This document shows, one piece after another, positions 51,686 through 58,993 of a stretch of DNA of 64,000 bases. Under the pieces are notes generated by a model, which was not told the DNA's origin, ran no database searches, and was given only the letters and a program-made list of their open reading frames with translations. Origin of the DNA: Streptomyces sp. NBC_01241 (GTDB lineage: Bacteria; Actinomycetota; Actinomycetes; Streptomycetales; Streptomycetaceae). The position numbers and the translations under genes are program-made. Position 1 is the first letter of the stretch. Every line of letters starts with the position of its first letter. The stretch is from contig NZ_CP108494.1 of the NCBI RefSeq assembly GCF_041435435.1, forward strand, positions 7,040,501-7,104,500, written 5' to 3'.

Positions 51686-53029
51686 GTGTCCGGTGCGGAC
51701 GTGAAACTGGTACTGCGCTCGACGCGTGTCGTCACCCCGGACGGGACGCGCCCCGCAGTGGTCGCCGTCGCCGAGGGGAGAATCGACGCAGTCCTGCCGT
51801 ACGACACCGAGGTGCCGGCCGGTGCCCGGCTGGAGGACTTCGGCGACGACGCCCTGCTGCCCGGACTCGTCGACACCCATGTCCATGTGAACGACCCCGG
51901 TCGCACCGCCTGGGAGGGCTTCCACACCGCCACCCGCGCCGCGGCGGCGGGCGGCATCACGACCCTGCTCGACATGCCGCTCAACTCCCTCCCGCCGACC
52001 ACCACCGTCCCGCATCTGCGCACCAAGCAGCAGGTGGCAGCCCCCAAGGCGCACATCGACACGGGATTCTGGGGCGGGGCGATCCCGTCCAACGTCAAGG
52101 ACCTGCGTCCGCTGCACGAGGCCGGGGTCTTCGGTTTCAAGTGCTTCCTCTCGCCCTCCGGCGTCGACGAGTTCCCCGAGCTCGACCAGGAGCAGCTGGC
52201 CCGGTCCATGGCCGAGATCTCCGGCTTCGGCGGGCTGCTGATCGTGCACGCCGAGGACCCACGCCAGCTGGCCTCCGCCCCGCAGCGCAGCGGGCCCGCG
52301 TACGCCGACTTCCTCGCCTCCCGGCCCCGGGACGCCGAGAACACCGCGATCGAGGGACTCATCGCGCACGCCAGGCGGATGAACGCCCGGGTCCATGTGC
52401 TGCACCTGTCCTCCAGTGACGCGCTGCCGTTGATCGCCGCCGCCAAGCGCGAGGGCGTACGGGTCACCGTCGAGTCCTGCCCGCACTTCCTCACCCTCAC
52501 CGCCGAGGAAGTCCCGGACGGCGCGACCGAGTTCAAGTGCTGCCCGCCGATCCGCGAGGCCGCCAACCAGGACGCGCTGTGGGAGGGGCTGGCCGACGGG
52601 ACGATCGACTGCATCGTCTCGGACCACTCGCCGTGTACCGCCGACCTCAAGACGCCGGACTTCGCCTCCGCGTGGGGCGGCATCTCCTCCCTCCAGCTGG
52701 GCCTTCCCGCCATCTGGACCGAGGCCCGCAAGCGCGGCCACTCGCTCGACGACGTCGTCCGCTGGATGTCCGCCGCCCCCGCCGAACTGGCCGGGCTGCC
52801 CCGCAAGGGCGCCATCGAGGCCGGCCGCGACGCCGACTTCGCGGTCCTCGCCCCCGACGCGACCTTCACCGTCGACCCCGCCGAGCTCTTCCACCGCAAC
52901 CAGGTCACCGCCTACGCCGGCAAGACCCTGCACGGCGTCGTGAGATCGACGTGGCTGCGCGGACGGCGGATCGCGGCGGACGGCACCGTCGGCGAACCCA
53001 CCGGCCGCCTTCTCGAAAGGAATCAGTGA
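51686..53029 (+). CDS. allB: Allantoinase
   Basis: A 447-residue amidohydrolase that opens allantoin to allantoate. It has the HxH metal motif [40 protein letters not shown], the probable carboxylated Lys in [18 protein letters not shown], His ligands in LIVHAEDP and [13 protein letters not shown], and the Asp in [10 protein letters not shown]. The GTG at 51686 follows GAGGAG. Its stop lies two bases before the allantoicase start, so the two genes formed one operon before the insertion. Confidence 0.95.
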
Positions 53030-53031
53030 CC

Positions 53032-53742
53032 ATGACGGCGACAGCCCGCTTCACCGGTGACGCGAACCCGTACGGCGGCGGCGACCCGTACGCCGACTAC
53101 CGCACCGCCGACCTCCCCTTCACCGGCCTCGTCGACCTCGCCGACCGGCGGCTCGGCGCCGGGGTGATCGCCGCCAACGACGAGTTCTTCGCCGAGCGCG
53201 AGAACCTCCTGAAGCCGGAGCCCGCCGAGTTCGACCCCGAGCGCTTCGGCCACAAGGGCAAGATCATGGACGGCTGGGAGACCCGCCGTCGGCGCGGCGC
53301 GGGCGCCGACCGGCCGCACCCCACGGACGAGGACCACGACTGGGCGCTGGTACGGCTCGGCGCGCCCGGAGTCGTACGCGGCATCGTCGTCGACACTGCC
53401 CACTTCCGCGGCAACCACCCGCAGGCGGTCTCCGTCGAGGCGGCCTGCGTCCCCGGCTCCCCGTCGCCCGAGGAACTCCTCGCGCCCGGAGTGAAGTGGA
53501 CAACGCTCGTACCGCGCACGGCCGTCGGCGGACACGCGGCCAATGGGTTCGTCGTCGCGGCCGAGCAGCGCGTCACCCATCTGCGGGTCAATCAGCACCC
53601 CGACGGCGGGATAGCCCGGCTCCGGGTGTACGGCGAGGTCACCCCCGACCCGGACTGGCTGGCCGCCCTCGGCACCATCGACCTGGTCGCCCTCGAGAAC
53701 GGCGGCCTGGTCGAGGACGCCTCCGACCGCTTCTACCTCTGA
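53032..53742 (+). pseudogene. alc: Allantoicase, 5' part, cut by insertion
   Basis: About 235 native codons: FTGLVDLADRRLGAGVIAAN, DEFFAERENLLKPEP, then GKIMDGWETRRRRGAGADRP, IVVDTAHFRGNHPQAVSVEA and LRVNQHPDGGIARLRVYGEV. This is the complete first allantoicase (galactose-binding-like) repeat. The native frame ends at FY (about 53736), and element sequence gives Leu and a stop. The second repeat resumes at 57426. Total 235 + 136 residues equals a normal allantoicase, so nothing was lost except continuity. The truncated product is unlikely to be active. Confidence 0.93.
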
Positions 53743-53764
53743 TCTTGGCCAGTGCTCCGCCCTT

Positions 53765-55543
53765 GAAGGACTCTGCTGAGGAATGCGTGATTCGAGCAGG
53801 GCTGGGTCGTTGGTCCTCCACGATTGTTATGGCGTGAGCGGGAGGGCCGGGAGATGTCACTGGAGCCACGGGCTGGTCATGGGGTGCCGGAGCTGACGGC
53901 CCGGGTGGTGCGGGCAGCGTTCCCGAAGGGGACGATGGCGGTGCGGATCCGGGAGGCGTTGGGCCCGCTGTTTGAGGACGAGGCGTTCGCAGGGGCGTTT
54001 GCCGTCCGGGGACGCCCGGCTGTCTCGCCGGGGGCGTTGGCTTTGGTGTCGGTGTTGCAGTACGCGGAGGGGCTGACCGATCGGCAGGCCGCTGACCAGG
54101 TGCGGGCCCGGATGGACTGGAAGTTTCTGCTCGGCCTGGAGCTGGACGATCCCGGGTTCGATGCCTCCGTGCTGAGCCTGTTCCGTTCCCGTCTCATTGA
54201 GCACGGACTGGAACAGACGACGCTGGAGCTGGTGCTGGAACGCCTGCGCGGGCTGGGCCTGCTGAAGGCCGGTGGCCGGCAGCGGACCGATTCCACGCAT
54301 GTGCTGGCGGCGGTGCGGACGCTGAACAGGATGGAGTTCGTCGGCGAGACGCTGCGGGCGGCGCTGGAGGCGCTGGCGGTCGCCGCCCCGGCATGGCTGT
54401 CCGGCCTGGTCACGGCCGAGTGGGCCGAGCGCTACGGGCCGCGCGTGGACGATTACCGCTTCCCCAAGGGCGAAGAGGTCCGTGAACAGTGGTCTGAGCA
54501 GGTCGGACGGGACGGGTTCGTCCTGCTGGAGGCGGTCTACGCCCCCGCGGCTCCGGACTGGCTGCGCGAGATCGAGGCGGTGCAGGTCCTGCGGGTCTCC
54601 TGGGTCCAGCAGTACCACCGCGACGAGAGGGGGTGCGCTGGCGGGAGGGCAAGGATCTCCCGCCGGTTCATCACCGGTTGTGCTCGCCCTATGACACCGA
54701 TGCCCGTTACGGGATCAAGCGCGGCTCGGGCTGGACCGGCTACAAGGCGCATCTGACCGAGACCTGCGAGCCGGATGCGCCGCACGTGATCACGCAGGTG
54801 GCCACCACCGATGCCGTGGTGGCCGACACGGAGATGACCGAACCGGTCCACCAGGCGCTCGCGGAACGGGAGTTGCTGCCGCACGTGCATGTCGTGGATG
54901 CCGGCTACACCACTGCCGCCCTGTTCCTGTCCGCGACCGAGCGGGGTATGGAACTGCTCGGCCCGGCCCCGCACGACAGCAGCCGCCAGTCCCAAGAGGA
55001 TCAGGGCTTCTCCCGCGCCGACTTCACCATCGACTGGGACAACGAGAGCGCCATCTGTCCCGGCGGGCACCGAAGTTTCGAGTGGTGGGAACAGAAACAC
55101 CACCGCAACGGCACTCCGGTCCTCAAGGTGTTCTTCTCCGCCGAGCACTGCCGCCCCTGCCCGAAGCAGACGGCATGCACCAAGCCCCCGTCCGGCCGCC
55201 GGGGCAGGGGCATCACCTTCCTGCCCCGCGAACGGCACGAGGCCCTCGAAGCCGTCCGCCAGGCCCAGGAGACCGACAATTGGAAGAACCGTTACGCGAT
55301 CCGGGCCGGGGTCGAAGGCACGATCTCCCGGGCCGTCCGTGTCACCGGCCTGCGCCGTACCCGCTACCGCGATCTACCCGCGACCCGCCTCGGCCACGTC
55401 TTCGCCTCCACCGCACTCAACCTCATCCGCATCGACCGATGGCTGACCGGCACCCCACTCGGCGGCACCCGCACCTCCCGCCTCGAAGCTCTGATGCTCG
55501 CGGCCTGACCACCCGAATCACGCATTCCTCAGCAGAGTCCTTC
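53765..55543 (+). mobile_element. IS1182-family insertion sequence, 1779 bp
   Basis: Perfect 30-bp terminal inverted repeats at 53765-53794 and 55514-55543 (starting GAAGGACTCTGCTGAGGAAT). The flanks CCGCCCT and AGGGCGG are themselves complementary, so it inserted inside a palindrome, which is the left-end hairpin of the outer element. Insertion into palindromes is a habit described for this IS group. Confidence 0.88.
53854..55508 (+). pseudogene. IS1182 transposase, frameshifted
   Basis: The first frame (MSLEPRAGHGVPELTARVVR; QYAEGLTDRQAADQVRARMD; QRTDSTHVLAAVRTLNRM with the first Asp) is open to RVSWVQQYHRDERG. The second frame carries on from VRWREGKDLPPVHHRLCSPY, with HVVDAGYTTAALFLSATERG (second Asp), a Cys cluster (HCRPCPKQTACTKP) and IRAGVEGTISRAVRVTGLRR (Glu). 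The switch is at GGGGG (54629-54633); one missing G, or -1 slippage there, explains it. With one frame restored the enzyme is about 551 residues with a full DDE set. Confidence 0.85.
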
Positions 55544-55575
55544 AGGGCGGGGGTGAAGGCCATCCTTGGCCCGGA

Positions 55576-55603
55576 GGCGCAGAGCGCCGGAGTGCTCTGC
55601 GCC
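55576..55603. terminator. Hairpin downstream of tnpA
   Basis: GGCGCAGAGC / GCTCTGCGCC 10-bp perfect stem with an 8-nt loop, 13 bp after the tnpA stop. It may end tnpA transcription. Confidence 0.55.
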
Positions 55604-55615
55604 TTGGGGTGAGGG

Positions 55616-56044
55616 TCAGACGGGACGCTGTTGGTTTTCGATGTACTGCTTGACGACGGTCAGGGGTGCGCCGCCGCAGGACCCTGCGAAGTAGGAGCCG
55701 GACCAGAAGTGTCCGCCCCACAGGTACCGGCGGACATGCGCGTTGTACTCCTGGCGGAGCCTGCGGGAACTGACGCCCTTGAGGGAGTTGACCAGTTTGG
55801 AGAGCTGCACCTTCGGCGGGTAGTGCACGAGCAGGTGGACGTGGTCCTGTTCGCCGTTGAACTGTTTCAGCTCGGCCTCGAAGTCGGCGCAGACCTCCCG
55901 CATGATCTCTTCGGTGCGGGTCAGCATGGCGTCGGTGAACGCTTCACGCCGGTACTTCGTGACAAAAACCAAATGAACATGCAGGTTGTAGACAACATGG
56001 CGACCGGTTCTGACATCGGGATGAGGGTTCCAGCGCGGTGACAT
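55616..56044 (-). CDS. tnpA: IS200/IS605 Y1 transposase TnpA
   Basis: A 142-residue HUH transposase. It has the HUH motif in GEQDHVHLLVHYPPKVQLSK (HVH) and the catalytic Tyr in VVKQYIENQQRPV, which is near the C-terminus as expected. HVHLVFVTKYRREAFTDAML is the family N-terminus. It cuts and joins single-stranded element ends. The reading frame is intact. It is divergent from tnpB, with 11 bp between starts. Confidence 0.92.
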   Translation of the reverse strand: MSPRWNPHPDVRTGRHVVYNLHVHLVFVTKYRREAFTDAMLTRTEEIMREVCADFEAELKQFNGEQDHVHLLVHYPPKVQLSKLVNSLKGVSSRRLRQEYNAHVRRYLWGGHFWSGSYFAGSCGGAPLTVVKQYIENQQRPV

Positions 56045-56055
56045 AAACCAATGCT

Positions 56056-57387
56056 ATGGTCTCGATCGTGAGTCAAGACACCATGGTCAAGCGGCAGTTC
56101 GGGCATCGTGCCCGGCTTGCGCTGTCGCCTGCCGAGGCGTTGAGGACTGATAGCCAGGCGCACGCGGCCCGCACCATGTGGAACCTGCTGCACGCCTGGT
56201 GGCAGATGATGCCGAAGGAAAAGCGGACTCTCGGACACGCGGATGCCGCCGTACGACAGGCCCGCAAGGACATCGACTTCCTTGCTGTCCTTCCCGCGCA
56301 GGCCGCGCAAGCGGTACTCAAGACGTACTTCCAGGCGTGGAAGAACTGCTGGGAGGGCCGCGCCGACGCCCCGAACTTCAAGGGCCGGTTCCGCACGGTG
56401 ATGTCCGTGGACGTCCCTCAGGGCCGGGACCTGAACATCGTGCGCGTGCACCGCCGCTGGGGCATGGCCAACATTCCCAAGGTGGGCCGGGTCCGCTTCC
56501 GGTGGACCAAAGACCTTCCGGTCGGCAAGCGTGCAGGCGCGGAGAACCGGATCACCGGGGCACGGCTGGTCAAGGACGCTTCCCCAAGCTCTCGGCTTCG
56601 CTCGAGCAGGGGAGGCCCCATTGGCTGGCACATCGCCTTCCGCGTCCAGACCTTGGAGGTCAAGCCCGAGCCCCACCAGGGGCCGGAAGTCGGCATCGAC
56701 GTGGGCGTCACCGTGCCCATCGCCCTCTCGGACGGCGAGACGTACGAGCACGGCGAATGGCTGACGGAGAAGGAGAAGGCCAGGCTTCTGCACCTGGAGC
56801 GGCGCGCCGCGCAGCGCAAGCGGCACCGCAAGCCCGGCGAGCGCACCAGCCGCCGGCTGCACCGCACCTACGACCAGATCGCAGGACTCCGCGCGAAAGC
56901 CAAGCGCAGGGCCCTGGACTGGCAGCACCAGACGACCACCGCCATCGCCCGCACATACGGCACCGTCGTGGTCGAAGCACTCACCATCACGAACATGGTC
57001 AAGTCCGCCAGGGGAACCATCGAGGAGCCAGGGAAGAACGTCGCCCAGAAGTCCGGGCTGAACCGCTCCATCAGCAAGGAGGCATGGGGCCGCACGGTCA
57101 CCATGCTGACGTACAAGACCGCCCGGCTCGGCGGCACCCTGCACAAGGTCCCCGCCCCCGGCACCTCCCAACGCTGCTCAGCGTGCGGCTTCACCACGCC
57201 CGGCAACCGGGAGAGCCAGGCCGTGTTCGTGTGCAAGAACCCCGACTGCGGCTGGTCGGGCAATGCCGACCACAACGCAGCCCGGAACGTCTTGCACCTG
57301 TACCGGATGGGCCTCGCGCTCATCCCGGCTGCCGGGAGGGCAGTCGTCAGACGTGCGAAGCGCGTCAAGCCCGCTGCCGCAAGGTAA
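56056..57387 (+). CDS. tnpB: TnpB RNA-guided nuclease
   Basis: A 443-residue TnpB. RuvC residues are present: Asp in VGIDVGVTVPIALSDGETYE, Glu in YGTVVVEALTITNMVKS, Asp in WSGNADHNAARNVL. The zinc finger is CSACGFTTPG with CKNPDCGW. The length fits the family, with one oddity: about 15 residues (SPSSRLRSSRGGPI) inserted in frame before WHIAFRVQ. The right end of the gene and its downstream hairpin would form the guide RNA scaffold. GTG starts near 56068 are possible alternatives to ATG at 56056. Confidence 0.9.
   Translation: MVSIVSQDTMVKRQFGHRARLALSPAEALRTDSQAHAARTMWNLLHAWWQMMPKEKRTLGHADAAVRQARKDIDFLAVLPAQAAQAVLKTYFQAWKNCWEGRADAPNFKGRFRTVMSVDVPQGRDLNIVRVHRRWGMANIPKVGRVRFRWTKDLPVGKRAGAENRITGARLVKDASPSSRLRSSRGGPIGWHIAFRVQTLEVKPEPHQGPEVGIDVGVTVPIALSDGETYEHGEWLTEKEKARLLHLERRAAQRKRHRKPGERTSRRLHRTYDQIAGLRAKAKRRALDWQHQTTTAIARTYGTVVVEALTITNMVKSARGTIEEPGKNVAQKSGLNRSISKEAWGRTVTMLTYKTARLGGTLHKVPAPGTSQRCSACGFTTPGNRESQAVFVCKNPDCGWSGNADHNAARNVLHLYRMGLALIPAAGRAVVRRAKRVKPAAAR
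56582..56620 (+). repeat. Palindromic repeat inserted in tnpB
   Basis: CCCCAAGCTCTCGGCTTCGC continues to GAGCAGGGGAGGCCCC. It can fold into a hairpin (CCCC-A-GCTC against GAGC-A-GGGG). I recall the same short element from many Streptomyces intergenic regions. It is read through in frame. Confidence 0.6.
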
Positions 57388-57445
57388 GCAGGAATCTCCC
57401 GGCTTCAGCCGGGAGAGCACTTCAATCGCCGGCCACCAACACCAT
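57300..57445 (+). ncRNA. Predicted TnpB guide RNA (omega/reRNA) region
   Basis: TnpB guide RNAs derive from the 3' part of tnpB through the right-end hairpin into flanking DNA. Here the hairpin at 57395-57416 and the terminal GCACTTCAA would be scaffold. The guide would be the next 15-20 bases, TCGCCGGCCACCAACACCAT, which is alc sequence. The RNA's 5' limit is a guess. This is family knowledge applied to position; no expression evidence. Confidence 0.4.
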
Positions 57446-57836
57446 CCAGCCGGGCAGGTCCCGCAAGATGGACGACGGCTGGGAGACCCGGCGCCGGCGC
57501 GACAAGGGCAACGACTGGATCCGCTACCGCCTCGTCGAGCAGGCGGAGATCCGCGCCGTGGAGATCGACACCGCGTATCTGAAGGGCAATTCGGCGGGCT
57601 GGGCGGGCCTTTCCGCCCGTGACGGGGAGAACGGCGACTGGACCGAGGTGCTGCCCCGGACCCGGCTGCAGCCCGATACGAACCACCGCTTCGTCCTGCC
57701 GGACGCGGTGCGGGCCACGCACGTGCGGATCGACATCTTCCCGGACGGCGGCATTTCCCGGCTGCGGCTGTTCGGGTCACCGACCGAGGAGGGCGCCGCC
57801 CGGTTGGCCGCGCGCCACCGGGAACTCGGCGGTTAG
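57426..57836 (+). pseudogene. alc: Allantoicase, 3' part
   Basis: The frame resumes SPATNTIQPGRSRKMDDGWE, then TRRRRDKGNDWIRYRLVEQA, VEIDTAYLKGNSAGWAGLSA and IDIFPDGGISRLRLFGSPTE to the stop at 57836. This is the second allantoicase repeat, 136 codons and undamaged. No promoter or start is present, so it is not translated alone. Preservation of both halves implies a fairly recent insertion. Confidence 0.92.
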
Positions 57837-57903
57837 CGCCCGTCCCGCGCTTTCCGGGTGTGCCTTGTCTGTCCGTGTTCATGGCATATGGGATCCTGTC
57901 GTC

Positions 57904-58236
57904 ATGATCTTCATCGCCGTCAAATTCACCGTCCACAGCGCCGAACGCGACAACTGGCTCCCGGCCGTCGAGGACTTCACCGTCGCTACCCGGAACGAGC
58001 CCGGCAATCTCTTCTTCGAGTGGTCGTACAGCGTCGAGAACCCGTACCAGTTCGTCCTGCTGGAGGCCTTCGCCTCCCCGGAGGCGGGCGAGGCCCATGT
58101 GAGGTCGGAGCACTTCGCGGCGGCGATGGACCGGATGGCGGATCTCGTCGCCGAGACTCCGGAGATCATCAACGTCGAGGTGCCGGGCGAGGGTTGGTCC
58201 CGGATGACGGAACTCGCCCCGCGCGGCCCGCGGTGA
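57904..58236 (+). CDS. Antibiotic biosynthesis monooxygenase-fold (quinol monooxygenase-like) protein
   Basis: A 110-residue ABM-fold protein (MIFIAVKFTVHSAERDNWLP; RNEPGNLFFEWSYSVENPYQ; FASPEAGEAHVRSEHFAAAM). The family includes small cofactor-free monooxygenases such as YgiN; the highly conserved EPG...FE and HxxSEHF-like blocks are seen. Cytoplasmic. It is separated from alc by 67 bp and is not clearly part of the allantoin operon. Confidence 0.82.
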   Translation: MIFIAVKFTVHSAERDNWLPAVEDFTVATRNEPGNLFFEWSYSVENPYQFVLLEAFASPEAGEAHVRSEHFAAAMDRMADLVAETPEIINVEVPGEGWSRMTELAPRGPR

Positions 58237-58337
58237 CGGGTACGTCGGCGCTGCGGGCCCCCGTTATGTTCTTCGCGGTCCTGCAAGAGGGCCGCTGGGC
58301 TCCGGGCCCGGCATGACTGTGTCCCCCTGTCGAACGG

Positions 58338-58993
58338 ATGACCTGGGGGGTGGTGTCACCGGGCCCGGGAGGTGCCGTCGGAGACGCTGATGAGAGGACC
58401 GGCCACTGCCCGGTCCGGCGCAATGCCGGACAGCTCGCGGTCGGCCTGATCCTGCTCTCCACCGTCGAGCCGGTTGCCGCGGGGGCCCTGCTCGTGGCCC
58501 TGTTCAGCGTCGCCGTGTACCGGCCGTTCCGCCCGGTGGCGGCCATCGGGGTGCTGCTGCCCCTGCTGGTGCTCAGCTGGGGCATGGTCGTACGGTCCAG
58601 GCGCCAGCTCGTCGTCACGCTCCGCGAGCGGGCCCGGCGGGCCGAGGCCGGGCCGGACTCCGCGCCGAGCAGGCGCAGCGGCTGGCCCGCCAGGCCATCG
58701 CCCGGGAGATGCACGATGTCCTCGCCCACCGGCTGACCCCCCTCAGCGTCCATGCCGGCGCCCTCGAATTCCGCCCCGCCGCGCCCCCGGCCGAAGTGGC
58801 GCGGGCCGCCGGTGTCATCCGGGACAGCGCGCACGACGCGCTCCAGGACCTCCGCGAGATCACCGGCGTCCTGCGCAGCCCCGGCGAGAGCGACGGCCCC
58901 CGGCCGCAGCCCGCCGACAGCCGTGGCCGGATAGCGCCGTCGGCGTATGACGCGGCCCGCTCGACGACTGCGGTGCGCAATCCGGCGGCATAG
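58338..58993 (+). pseudogene. Two-component histidine kinase remnant
   Basis: The first frame holds two membrane helices (GLILLSTVEPVAAGALLVAL; VAAIGVLLPLLVLSWGMVVR). Near 58655 it slips, and the next frame gives RLARQAIAREMHDVLAHRLT, with the phospho-acceptor His box of the HisKA_3/DesK type, and SVHAGALEFRPAAPPAEVAR. The HATPase catalytic domain is absent, and the frame ends about 50 residues later. It is therefore frameshifted and truncated. No response regulator gene follows. Confidence 0.7.

What the first reader, a model, noticed from the sequence alone, without database searches (positions are those of the whole stretch)
57395..57445. TnpB guide would match the allantoicase gene, favouring loss of intact alleles
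The bases right after the element's right end, used as guide by TnpB proteins, are alc codons (TCGCCGGCCACCAACACC). The left flank TTCTAC would be the required adjacent motif, and it resembles the element's own terminal TTCAA. TnpB has a complete RuvC triad. An intact alc copy arriving by mating or present on a sister chromosome could therefore be cut and repaired with the element-bearing copy. This would make the metabolic lesion self-maintaining.
Basis: inference. Interest (0 to 1): 0.75.

Follow-up and report, generated by a model that had tools for sequence, protein, structure and literature searches.

The report
TnpB transposon in allantoicase gene
A common kind of bacterial jumping gene, carrying its usual RNA-guided DNA cutter, has landed cleanly inside a Streptomyces urate-breakdown gene, so its guide would point at intact copies of that gene; this follows the known behaviour of the family, and the bacterium holds a second allantoicase gene that the guide probably spares.

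Summary
The anatomy is real. An IS200/IS605 element (53737-57425) splits alc. Removing it restores a 371-codon allantoicase frame with no base gained or lost. The bases after its right end (57426 on) are alc codons, in the position that TnpB guides occupy. TnpB has an invariant D215/E307/D405 triad, evolves under purifying selection, and its 3' end carries an overlapping, conserved RNA signal that stops at the element's end. Comparing 50 related left ends corrects the adjacent motif to TCTAC (45/50); the first T of TTCTAC is chance. Guide choice and homing into uninserted alleles are the established IS200/IS605-TnpB model, including a demonstrated gene drive, so this is a new member of a known kind.

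The "self-maintaining metabolic lesion" is weakened. The genome has a second intact allantoicase with TTCTAC but 7/20 guide mismatches. No exact target exists in the genome. None of 392 other Streptomyces genomes shows the element at this site. The window TnpB has a 13-residue insertion, although sister copies could supply the protein. Cleavage of alc was not tested.

Unexpected: all six copies of this element have the same IS1182-family element in the loop of the left-end hairpin, and those six are the only copies of that IS in the genome.

The parts
53032..53736 (+). 5' part of alc (allantoicase), ending in the codons for ...DRFY
   Evidence: Pfam Allantoicase 2.4e-52; TIGR02961 1.7e-76; joined frame; the start codon is inferred
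53732..53736 (+). TCTAC: target motif / left cleavage site and inferred TnpB transposon-adjacent motif
   Evidence: TCTAC in 6/6 own copies and 45/50 distinct left ends; the base before it varies
53737..57425 (+). IS200/IS605-family element, 3689 bp including the nested IS
   Evidence: shared ends and diverging flanks in 6 own copies and about 80 relatives
53737..53767 (+). outer left end with 5' arm of the left-end hairpin (CCGCCC)
   Evidence: intact hairpin CCGCCC-TTCA-GGGCGG in relatives; DNA fold
53768..55540 (+). nested IS1182-family element, 27-bp perfect terminal inverted repeats, transposase frameshifted in this copy
   Evidence: NF033551 transpos_IS1182 3.6e-52; the L027 copy reads through the frameshift position
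55541..55552 (+). TTCA plus 3' arm of the left-end hairpin (GGGCGG)
55616..56044 (-). tnpA, Y1 (HUH) transposase of IS200/IS605 type
   Evidence: Pfam Y1_Tnp 8.2e-47; NF033573 3.9e-47
56056..57387 (+). tnpB, 443 aa, RuvC D215/E307/D405 and zinc finger C374/C377/C393/C398
   Evidence: NF040570 guided_TnpB 200 bits, cut-off 100; PDB matches to ISDra2 TnpB; invariant residues; dN/dS about 0.25
56581..56619 (+). 39-bp in-frame insertion (13 aa, about residues 176-188) made of an interspersed palindromic repeat
   Evidence: absent from the aligned homologues; repeat found 15 times in the genome, also in two sister copies
57250..57425 (+). inferred scaffold of the TnpB guide RNA (omega RNA / reRNA): last 45 tnpB codons plus right end
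   Evidence: synonymous variation halves over the last 45 codons; consensus structure
57396..57415 (+). right-end hairpin CTCCCGGC-TTCA-GCCGGGAG
   Evidence: 31 both-sided compensatory cells against 10.6 in shuffles, covariation 0.347 against at most 0.097 when slid
57421..57425 (+). TTCAA, right terminal motif / right cleavage site
   Evidence: nearly invariant in 83 right ends
57426..57445 (+). predicted guide (16-20 nt): alc codons TCGCCGGCCACCAACACCAT
   Evidence: flank varies between copies immediately after TTCAA; the ISDra2 guide is about 16 nt
57426..57836 (+). 3' part of alc
   Evidence: Pfam Allantoicase 8.5e-32

Best explanation
An IS200/IS605-family element entered alc just 3' of a TCTAC by the usual single-strand insertion without target duplication (shown by anatomy). 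Its tnpB and right end should be transcribed, in the alc sense direction, into a guide RNA whose last 16-20 bases are alc codons (inferred from conserved RNA structure and from ISDra2). TnpB loaded with it would cut intact alc next to TCTAC, so that repair from an element-bearing copy re-installs the element (established for other family members, inferred here). This is the family's ordinary retention and homing behaviour, not something special to alc. Because every element copy in this genome has its left-end hairpin split by an IS1182-family element, excision is probably impaired, and the likely opponents are intact alc alleles arriving on conjugated or other foreign DNA. The host is probably not allantoicase-deficient, because an intact paralogue is present and mismatches the guide.
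For: Element ends and target motif. Clean restoration of alc. Orthologous empty sites. Catalytic residues, domains and constraint. Overlapping RNA: synonymous difference 0.149 in the last 45 codons against 0.302 elsewhere, lowest other 45-codon stretch 0.204; right-end hairpin covariation; consensus fold. No exact TCTAC plus 12 guide bases in the genome, and no empty site of five copies except the diverged alc paralogue. Mechanism in relatives: PMC8612924, PMC11870625, PMC10278001. Second allantoicase. Nested IS in all six left ends.
Against: No transcript or cleavage data. The window TnpB carries a 13-residue insertion between two strands before RuvC that could impair it; three full-length sister copies without the insertion (L027, L028, L029) could act in trans, which is inferred. 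Absence of exact targets is expected by chance for a 17-mer and is not evidence of cutting. The element is private to this genome among those sampled, so no spread at this site is seen.
Confidence: 0.65

Rival explanations
1. A trapped, decaying insertion: the left-end hairpin is destroyed by the IS1182 element and TnpB is damaged by the 13-residue insertion, so nothing is cut and alc is simply a pseudogene.
For: All six left-end hairpins are split; 13-residue insertion; one of six copies (L030) lost its tnpB 3' end and right end; nested transposase frameshifted in the window copy.
Against: TnpB is otherwise intact with an invariant active site, and constraint holds among sister copies (dN/dS 0.19-0.27); three sister copies have full-length TnpB without the insertion and near-identical scaffolds, so guide RNA from the window copy could be loaded in trans.
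Confidence: 0.3
2. One reading: the guide actively maintains a metabolic lesion in alc.
For: The guide matches orthologous alc alleles: of 29 orthologues in relatives, 28 keep TCTAC and 23 have 0-2 mismatches in 20 bases; one has both the motif and a perfect match (L128).
Against: A second intact allantoicase (G000:C1:2812599-2813834, TIGR02961 386 bits, cut-off 278) remains and has 7/20 mismatches, 4 in the first 12. The insertion is seen in 1 of 393 genomes.
Confidence: 0.12
3. TnpB has become a guide-directed repressor or another domesticated factor with no cutting.
For: Such TnpB derivatives are known to exist (from memory, not tested here).
Against: The complete triad D215/E307/D405 and the zinc finger are invariant, the guide scaffold ends at the transposon end, and there are several mobile copies.
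Confidence: 0.03

Closest known systems
ISDra2 and its TnpB (Deinococcus radiodurans), IS200/IS605 family
   Same: Y1 TnpA plus TnpB, pentanucleotide target motif at the left flank, no target duplication, right-end hairpin, guide from the right flank
   Different: motif TCTAC instead of TTGAT; tnpA and tnpB diverge here; left end carries a nested IS1182-family element; TnpB has a 13-residue insertion in this copy
IS608 (Helicobacter pylori), IS605 group
   Same: tnpA/tnpB element with short left-flank target (TTAC in IS608, from PMC8612924; CTAC core here); a TCAA right terminus for IS608 is recalled, not tested
   Different: five-base target; host and sequence distant
IS200/605 TnpB gene drive on plasmids (PMC11870625)
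   Same: the proposed action: cutting uninserted alleles so that inserted ones replace them
   Different: shown there on multicopy plasmids; here the target is a chromosomal gene and nothing has been shown
IS1182-family IS1272 (PMC4923244, PMC5678879)
   Same: family and preference for hairpins, several insertions into one target in both orientations
   Different: here the target is the left-end hairpin loop of another transposon, in every copy, mostly with TTCA on both sides, where IS1272 deletes part of the stem without duplication

Membership tests
IS200/IS605 transposon (IS605-type) | Y1 HUH transposase TnpA | tested here: met
   Pfam Y1_Tnp 8.2e-47, NF033573 above cut-off
IS200/IS605 transposon (IS605-type) | subterminal hairpins at both ends, no inverted-repeat termini | tested here: met
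   left and right hairpins in relatives; the left one is split by a nested IS in the window
IS200/IS605 transposon (IS605-type) | insertion 3' of a fixed short target without duplication | tested here: met
   TCTAC 45/50; exact alc join
IS200/IS605 transposon (IS605-type) | transposition activity | tested here: inconclusive
   six copies at different sites show past movement; present activity unknown, left ends interrupted
TnpB RNA-guided endonuclease | RuvC D-E-D triad and zinc finger | tested here: met
   invariant in 41 homologues; NF040570
TnpB RNA-guided endonuclease | guide RNA scaffold overlapping the tnpB 3' end and ending at the element's right end | tested here: met
   as a sequence signature only: synonymous constraint and covariation; no RNA seen
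TnpB RNA-guided endonuclease | guided cleavage beside the left-flank motif | not testable with these tools
   needs an assay
IS1182 family (nested element) | IS1182-type transposase | tested here: met
   NF033551 3.6e-52 to the 3' half, profile 245-488; below the whole-protein cut-off because the frame is broken here

The most novel reading that the evidence does not exclude
An IS1182-family element has specialised in the left-end hairpin loop of IS200/IS605-TnpB elements. All six copies in this genome sit there, in both orientations and partly by independent insertion; a close relative in a second genome does the same, and two more sit beside sequences that look like IS605-type left ends. If so, one transposon parasitises or disarms another at the structure its transposase must read, while leaving the TnpB guide system, here aimed at alc, in place.
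Probability: 0.5. Interest if true: 0.5.

Novelty: new member of a known kind. Interest (0 to 1): 0.32.

Why it matters
It gives a well-bounded actinobacterial TnpB family with a predicted motif (TCTAC) and predicted guides, which can be tested directly, and it shows that calling such an insertion a self-maintaining lesion needs a check for paralogues. The nesting in all six left ends makes a separate question testable: whether TnpB-bearing elements stay as guided nucleases after excision is blocked.

Tried and rejected
Rfam search of 53000-58500 found no family. The structure model was of moderate quality (mean pLDDT 60), so only the loop position of the insertion is used, and its PDB matches (best to a TnpB complex, low TM-scores) are supporting only. 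Absence of exact self-targets was considered as evidence of cutting and rejected: none is expected by chance. A reading-phase preference of insertions (sense codons) was looked at and was not clear: joined flanks are open in phase 0 for 24 of 49 elements and in phase 1 for 21. A recurring insertion at alc in other species was sought and not found. The idea that all six composites moved as units was rejected for L029 and L030, where nested IS identity (99.55%) far exceeds host-element identity (93.5%); it remains possible for the pair L025/L026.

Full report
What is there. The window (G000:C1:7040501-7104500) comes from a Streptomyces-type genome: the named contigs with close relatives of its TnpB are nearly all Streptomyces. 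It contains allantoinase (51686-53029, TIGR03178 622 bits) followed by allantoicase alc, split into 53032-53736 and 57426-57836. Between them lies an IS200/IS605-family element, 53737-57425, with tnpA on the minus strand, tnpB on the plus strand, and a further 1773-bp IS1182-family element nested in its left end (53768-55540).

Boundaries. The genome holds six copies of the element. All six left flanks end TCTAC|CTCTGATCTTGG, and five right ends read GAGAGCACTTCAA| followed by different sequence; the sixth copy, L030, has lost its right end. In 50 distinct left ends from this genome and relatives the bases before the element are TCTAC in 45 (four of them when the start is set one base earlier), the exceptions being three TCTGC, one TCTAG and one unrelated. 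The sixth base is T/G/C/A 17/17/10/6. The motif is therefore TCTAC, not TTCTAC. TTCAA at the right end is nearly invariant in 83 right ends, and the next bases vary. Removing 53737-57425 restores an open alc frame with no base gained or lost, and orthologues in relatives read through the same point.

TnpB and its RNA. TnpB matches guided_TnpB (200 bits, cut-off 100) and the solved ISDra2 TnpB (2.7e-47). D215, E307, D405 and the four zinc-finger cysteines are invariant in 41 homologues, and pairwise dN/dS is about 0.25. Synonymous variation over the last 45 codons is half that of the rest of the gene and lower than in any other 45-codon stretch (0.149 against 0.302; lowest 0.204), as expected if a structured RNA overlaps the 3' end. 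The right-end hairpin shows compensatory change: 31 both-sided cells against 10.6 in shuffles, and a covariation score of 0.347 against at most 0.097 when slid. These are sequence signatures of an omega RNA ending at 57425; the right-end hairpin is also needed as DNA for transposition, so its covariation alone does not separate the two roles, whereas the synonymous constraint inside tnpB does point to RNA. No RNA has been seen. In ISDra2 the bound RNA carries about 16 nt of flanking DNA as guide and the left-flank motif licenses cutting (PMC8612924).

What the guide would hit. The predicted guide is TCGCCGGCCACCAACACCAT. The genome has no exact match to TCTAC plus its first 12 bases, and no empty site for five copies other than the diverged alc paralogue. 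Neither fact is evidence of cutting. Of 29 orthologous alc genes in relatives, 28 keep TCTAC and 23 have at most two mismatches in 20; one (L128) has both the motif and a perfect match, and another (L136) has a perfect match without the motif. So intact alleles from related species are plausible targets; how many mismatches this TnpB tolerates is unknown.

Is there a lesion? The genome has a second allantoicase gene at G000:C1:2812599-2813834, passing the TIGR02961 cut-off (386 against 278 bits). Its site is TTCTAC followed by TCCTCGCCGACCCAGATCAT, 7 mismatches in 20 and 4 in the first 12, so it is probably not cut. Several relatives also have both genes. The strain is therefore not shown to lack allantoicase activity, and the phrase "self-maintaining metabolic lesion" overstates the case. 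The same junction was found in none of 392 other Streptomyces genomes (the single other match, with two mismatches, was not examined further).

Obstacles in this copy. TnpB has 13 extra residues (about 176-188) from an in-frame palindromic repeat found 15 times in the genome. The model puts them in a low-confidence loop between two strands. The sister copies L027, L028 and L029 lack this insertion and have full-length tnpB, so the protein could come from them; this is inference.

The nested IS. Exactly six copies of the IS1182-family element are in the genome, one in the left-end hairpin loop of each of the six IS605-type elements. L025 and L026 have one orientation, the other four the opposite. 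Nested copies in L029 and L030 are 99.55% identical while their hosts are 93.5% identical, so at least some insertions are independent. In a second genome (L196, G333) a 90% identical relative sits in the same place, and two more (L197, L200) are next to sequences that resemble IS605-type left ends with CTAC before them (that reading is by eye). A more distant relative (L198) sits elsewhere. IS1182-family elements are known to prefer hairpins (PMC4923244). The effect on excision was not tested, but the hairpin is the structure TnpA must read (established for the family), so impaired excision is likely.

Placement. The finding is an ordinary IS200/IS605-TnpB insertion. Membership in the element family and in the TnpB family is met on the sequence features tested; activity is untested.

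Noticed in passing
window 53768-55540; L025-L030; L196, L197, L200: An IS1182-family element is present six times in the genome, each time in the TTCA loop of the left-end hairpin of an IS200/IS605 element, in both orientations; one relative in another genome is in the same place and two more appear to be.
   Followed up: partly
L152:2100-3335 (-), G000:C1:2812599-2813834: Second intact allantoicase gene with the TTCTAC motif but a diverged guide region.
   Followed up: yes
window 56582-56612: Interspersed palindromic repeat CCCCAAGCTCTCGGCTTCGCTCGAGCAGGGG, 15 copies in the genome, inserted in tnpB of three element copies (in frame in the window copy).
   Followed up: partly
L027 and L028 (nested IS region): The nested IS1182 element itself carries a 2.56-kb insertion encoding a reverse transcriptase/maturase-like protein (probable group II intron, judged by reading the sequence); L028 has a further 7.2 kb.
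   Followed up: no
L049 near 5426: A short GGACTCC palindrome flanked by TTCA in the same left-end hairpin loop in another Streptomyces, possibly a remnant of an IS1182-type insertion.
   Followed up: no
L028 flanks: Another copy of the element interrupts a gene whose product resembles (from memory) a small protein found beside transposon recombinases, so its guide would point at another mobile element.
   Followed up: no
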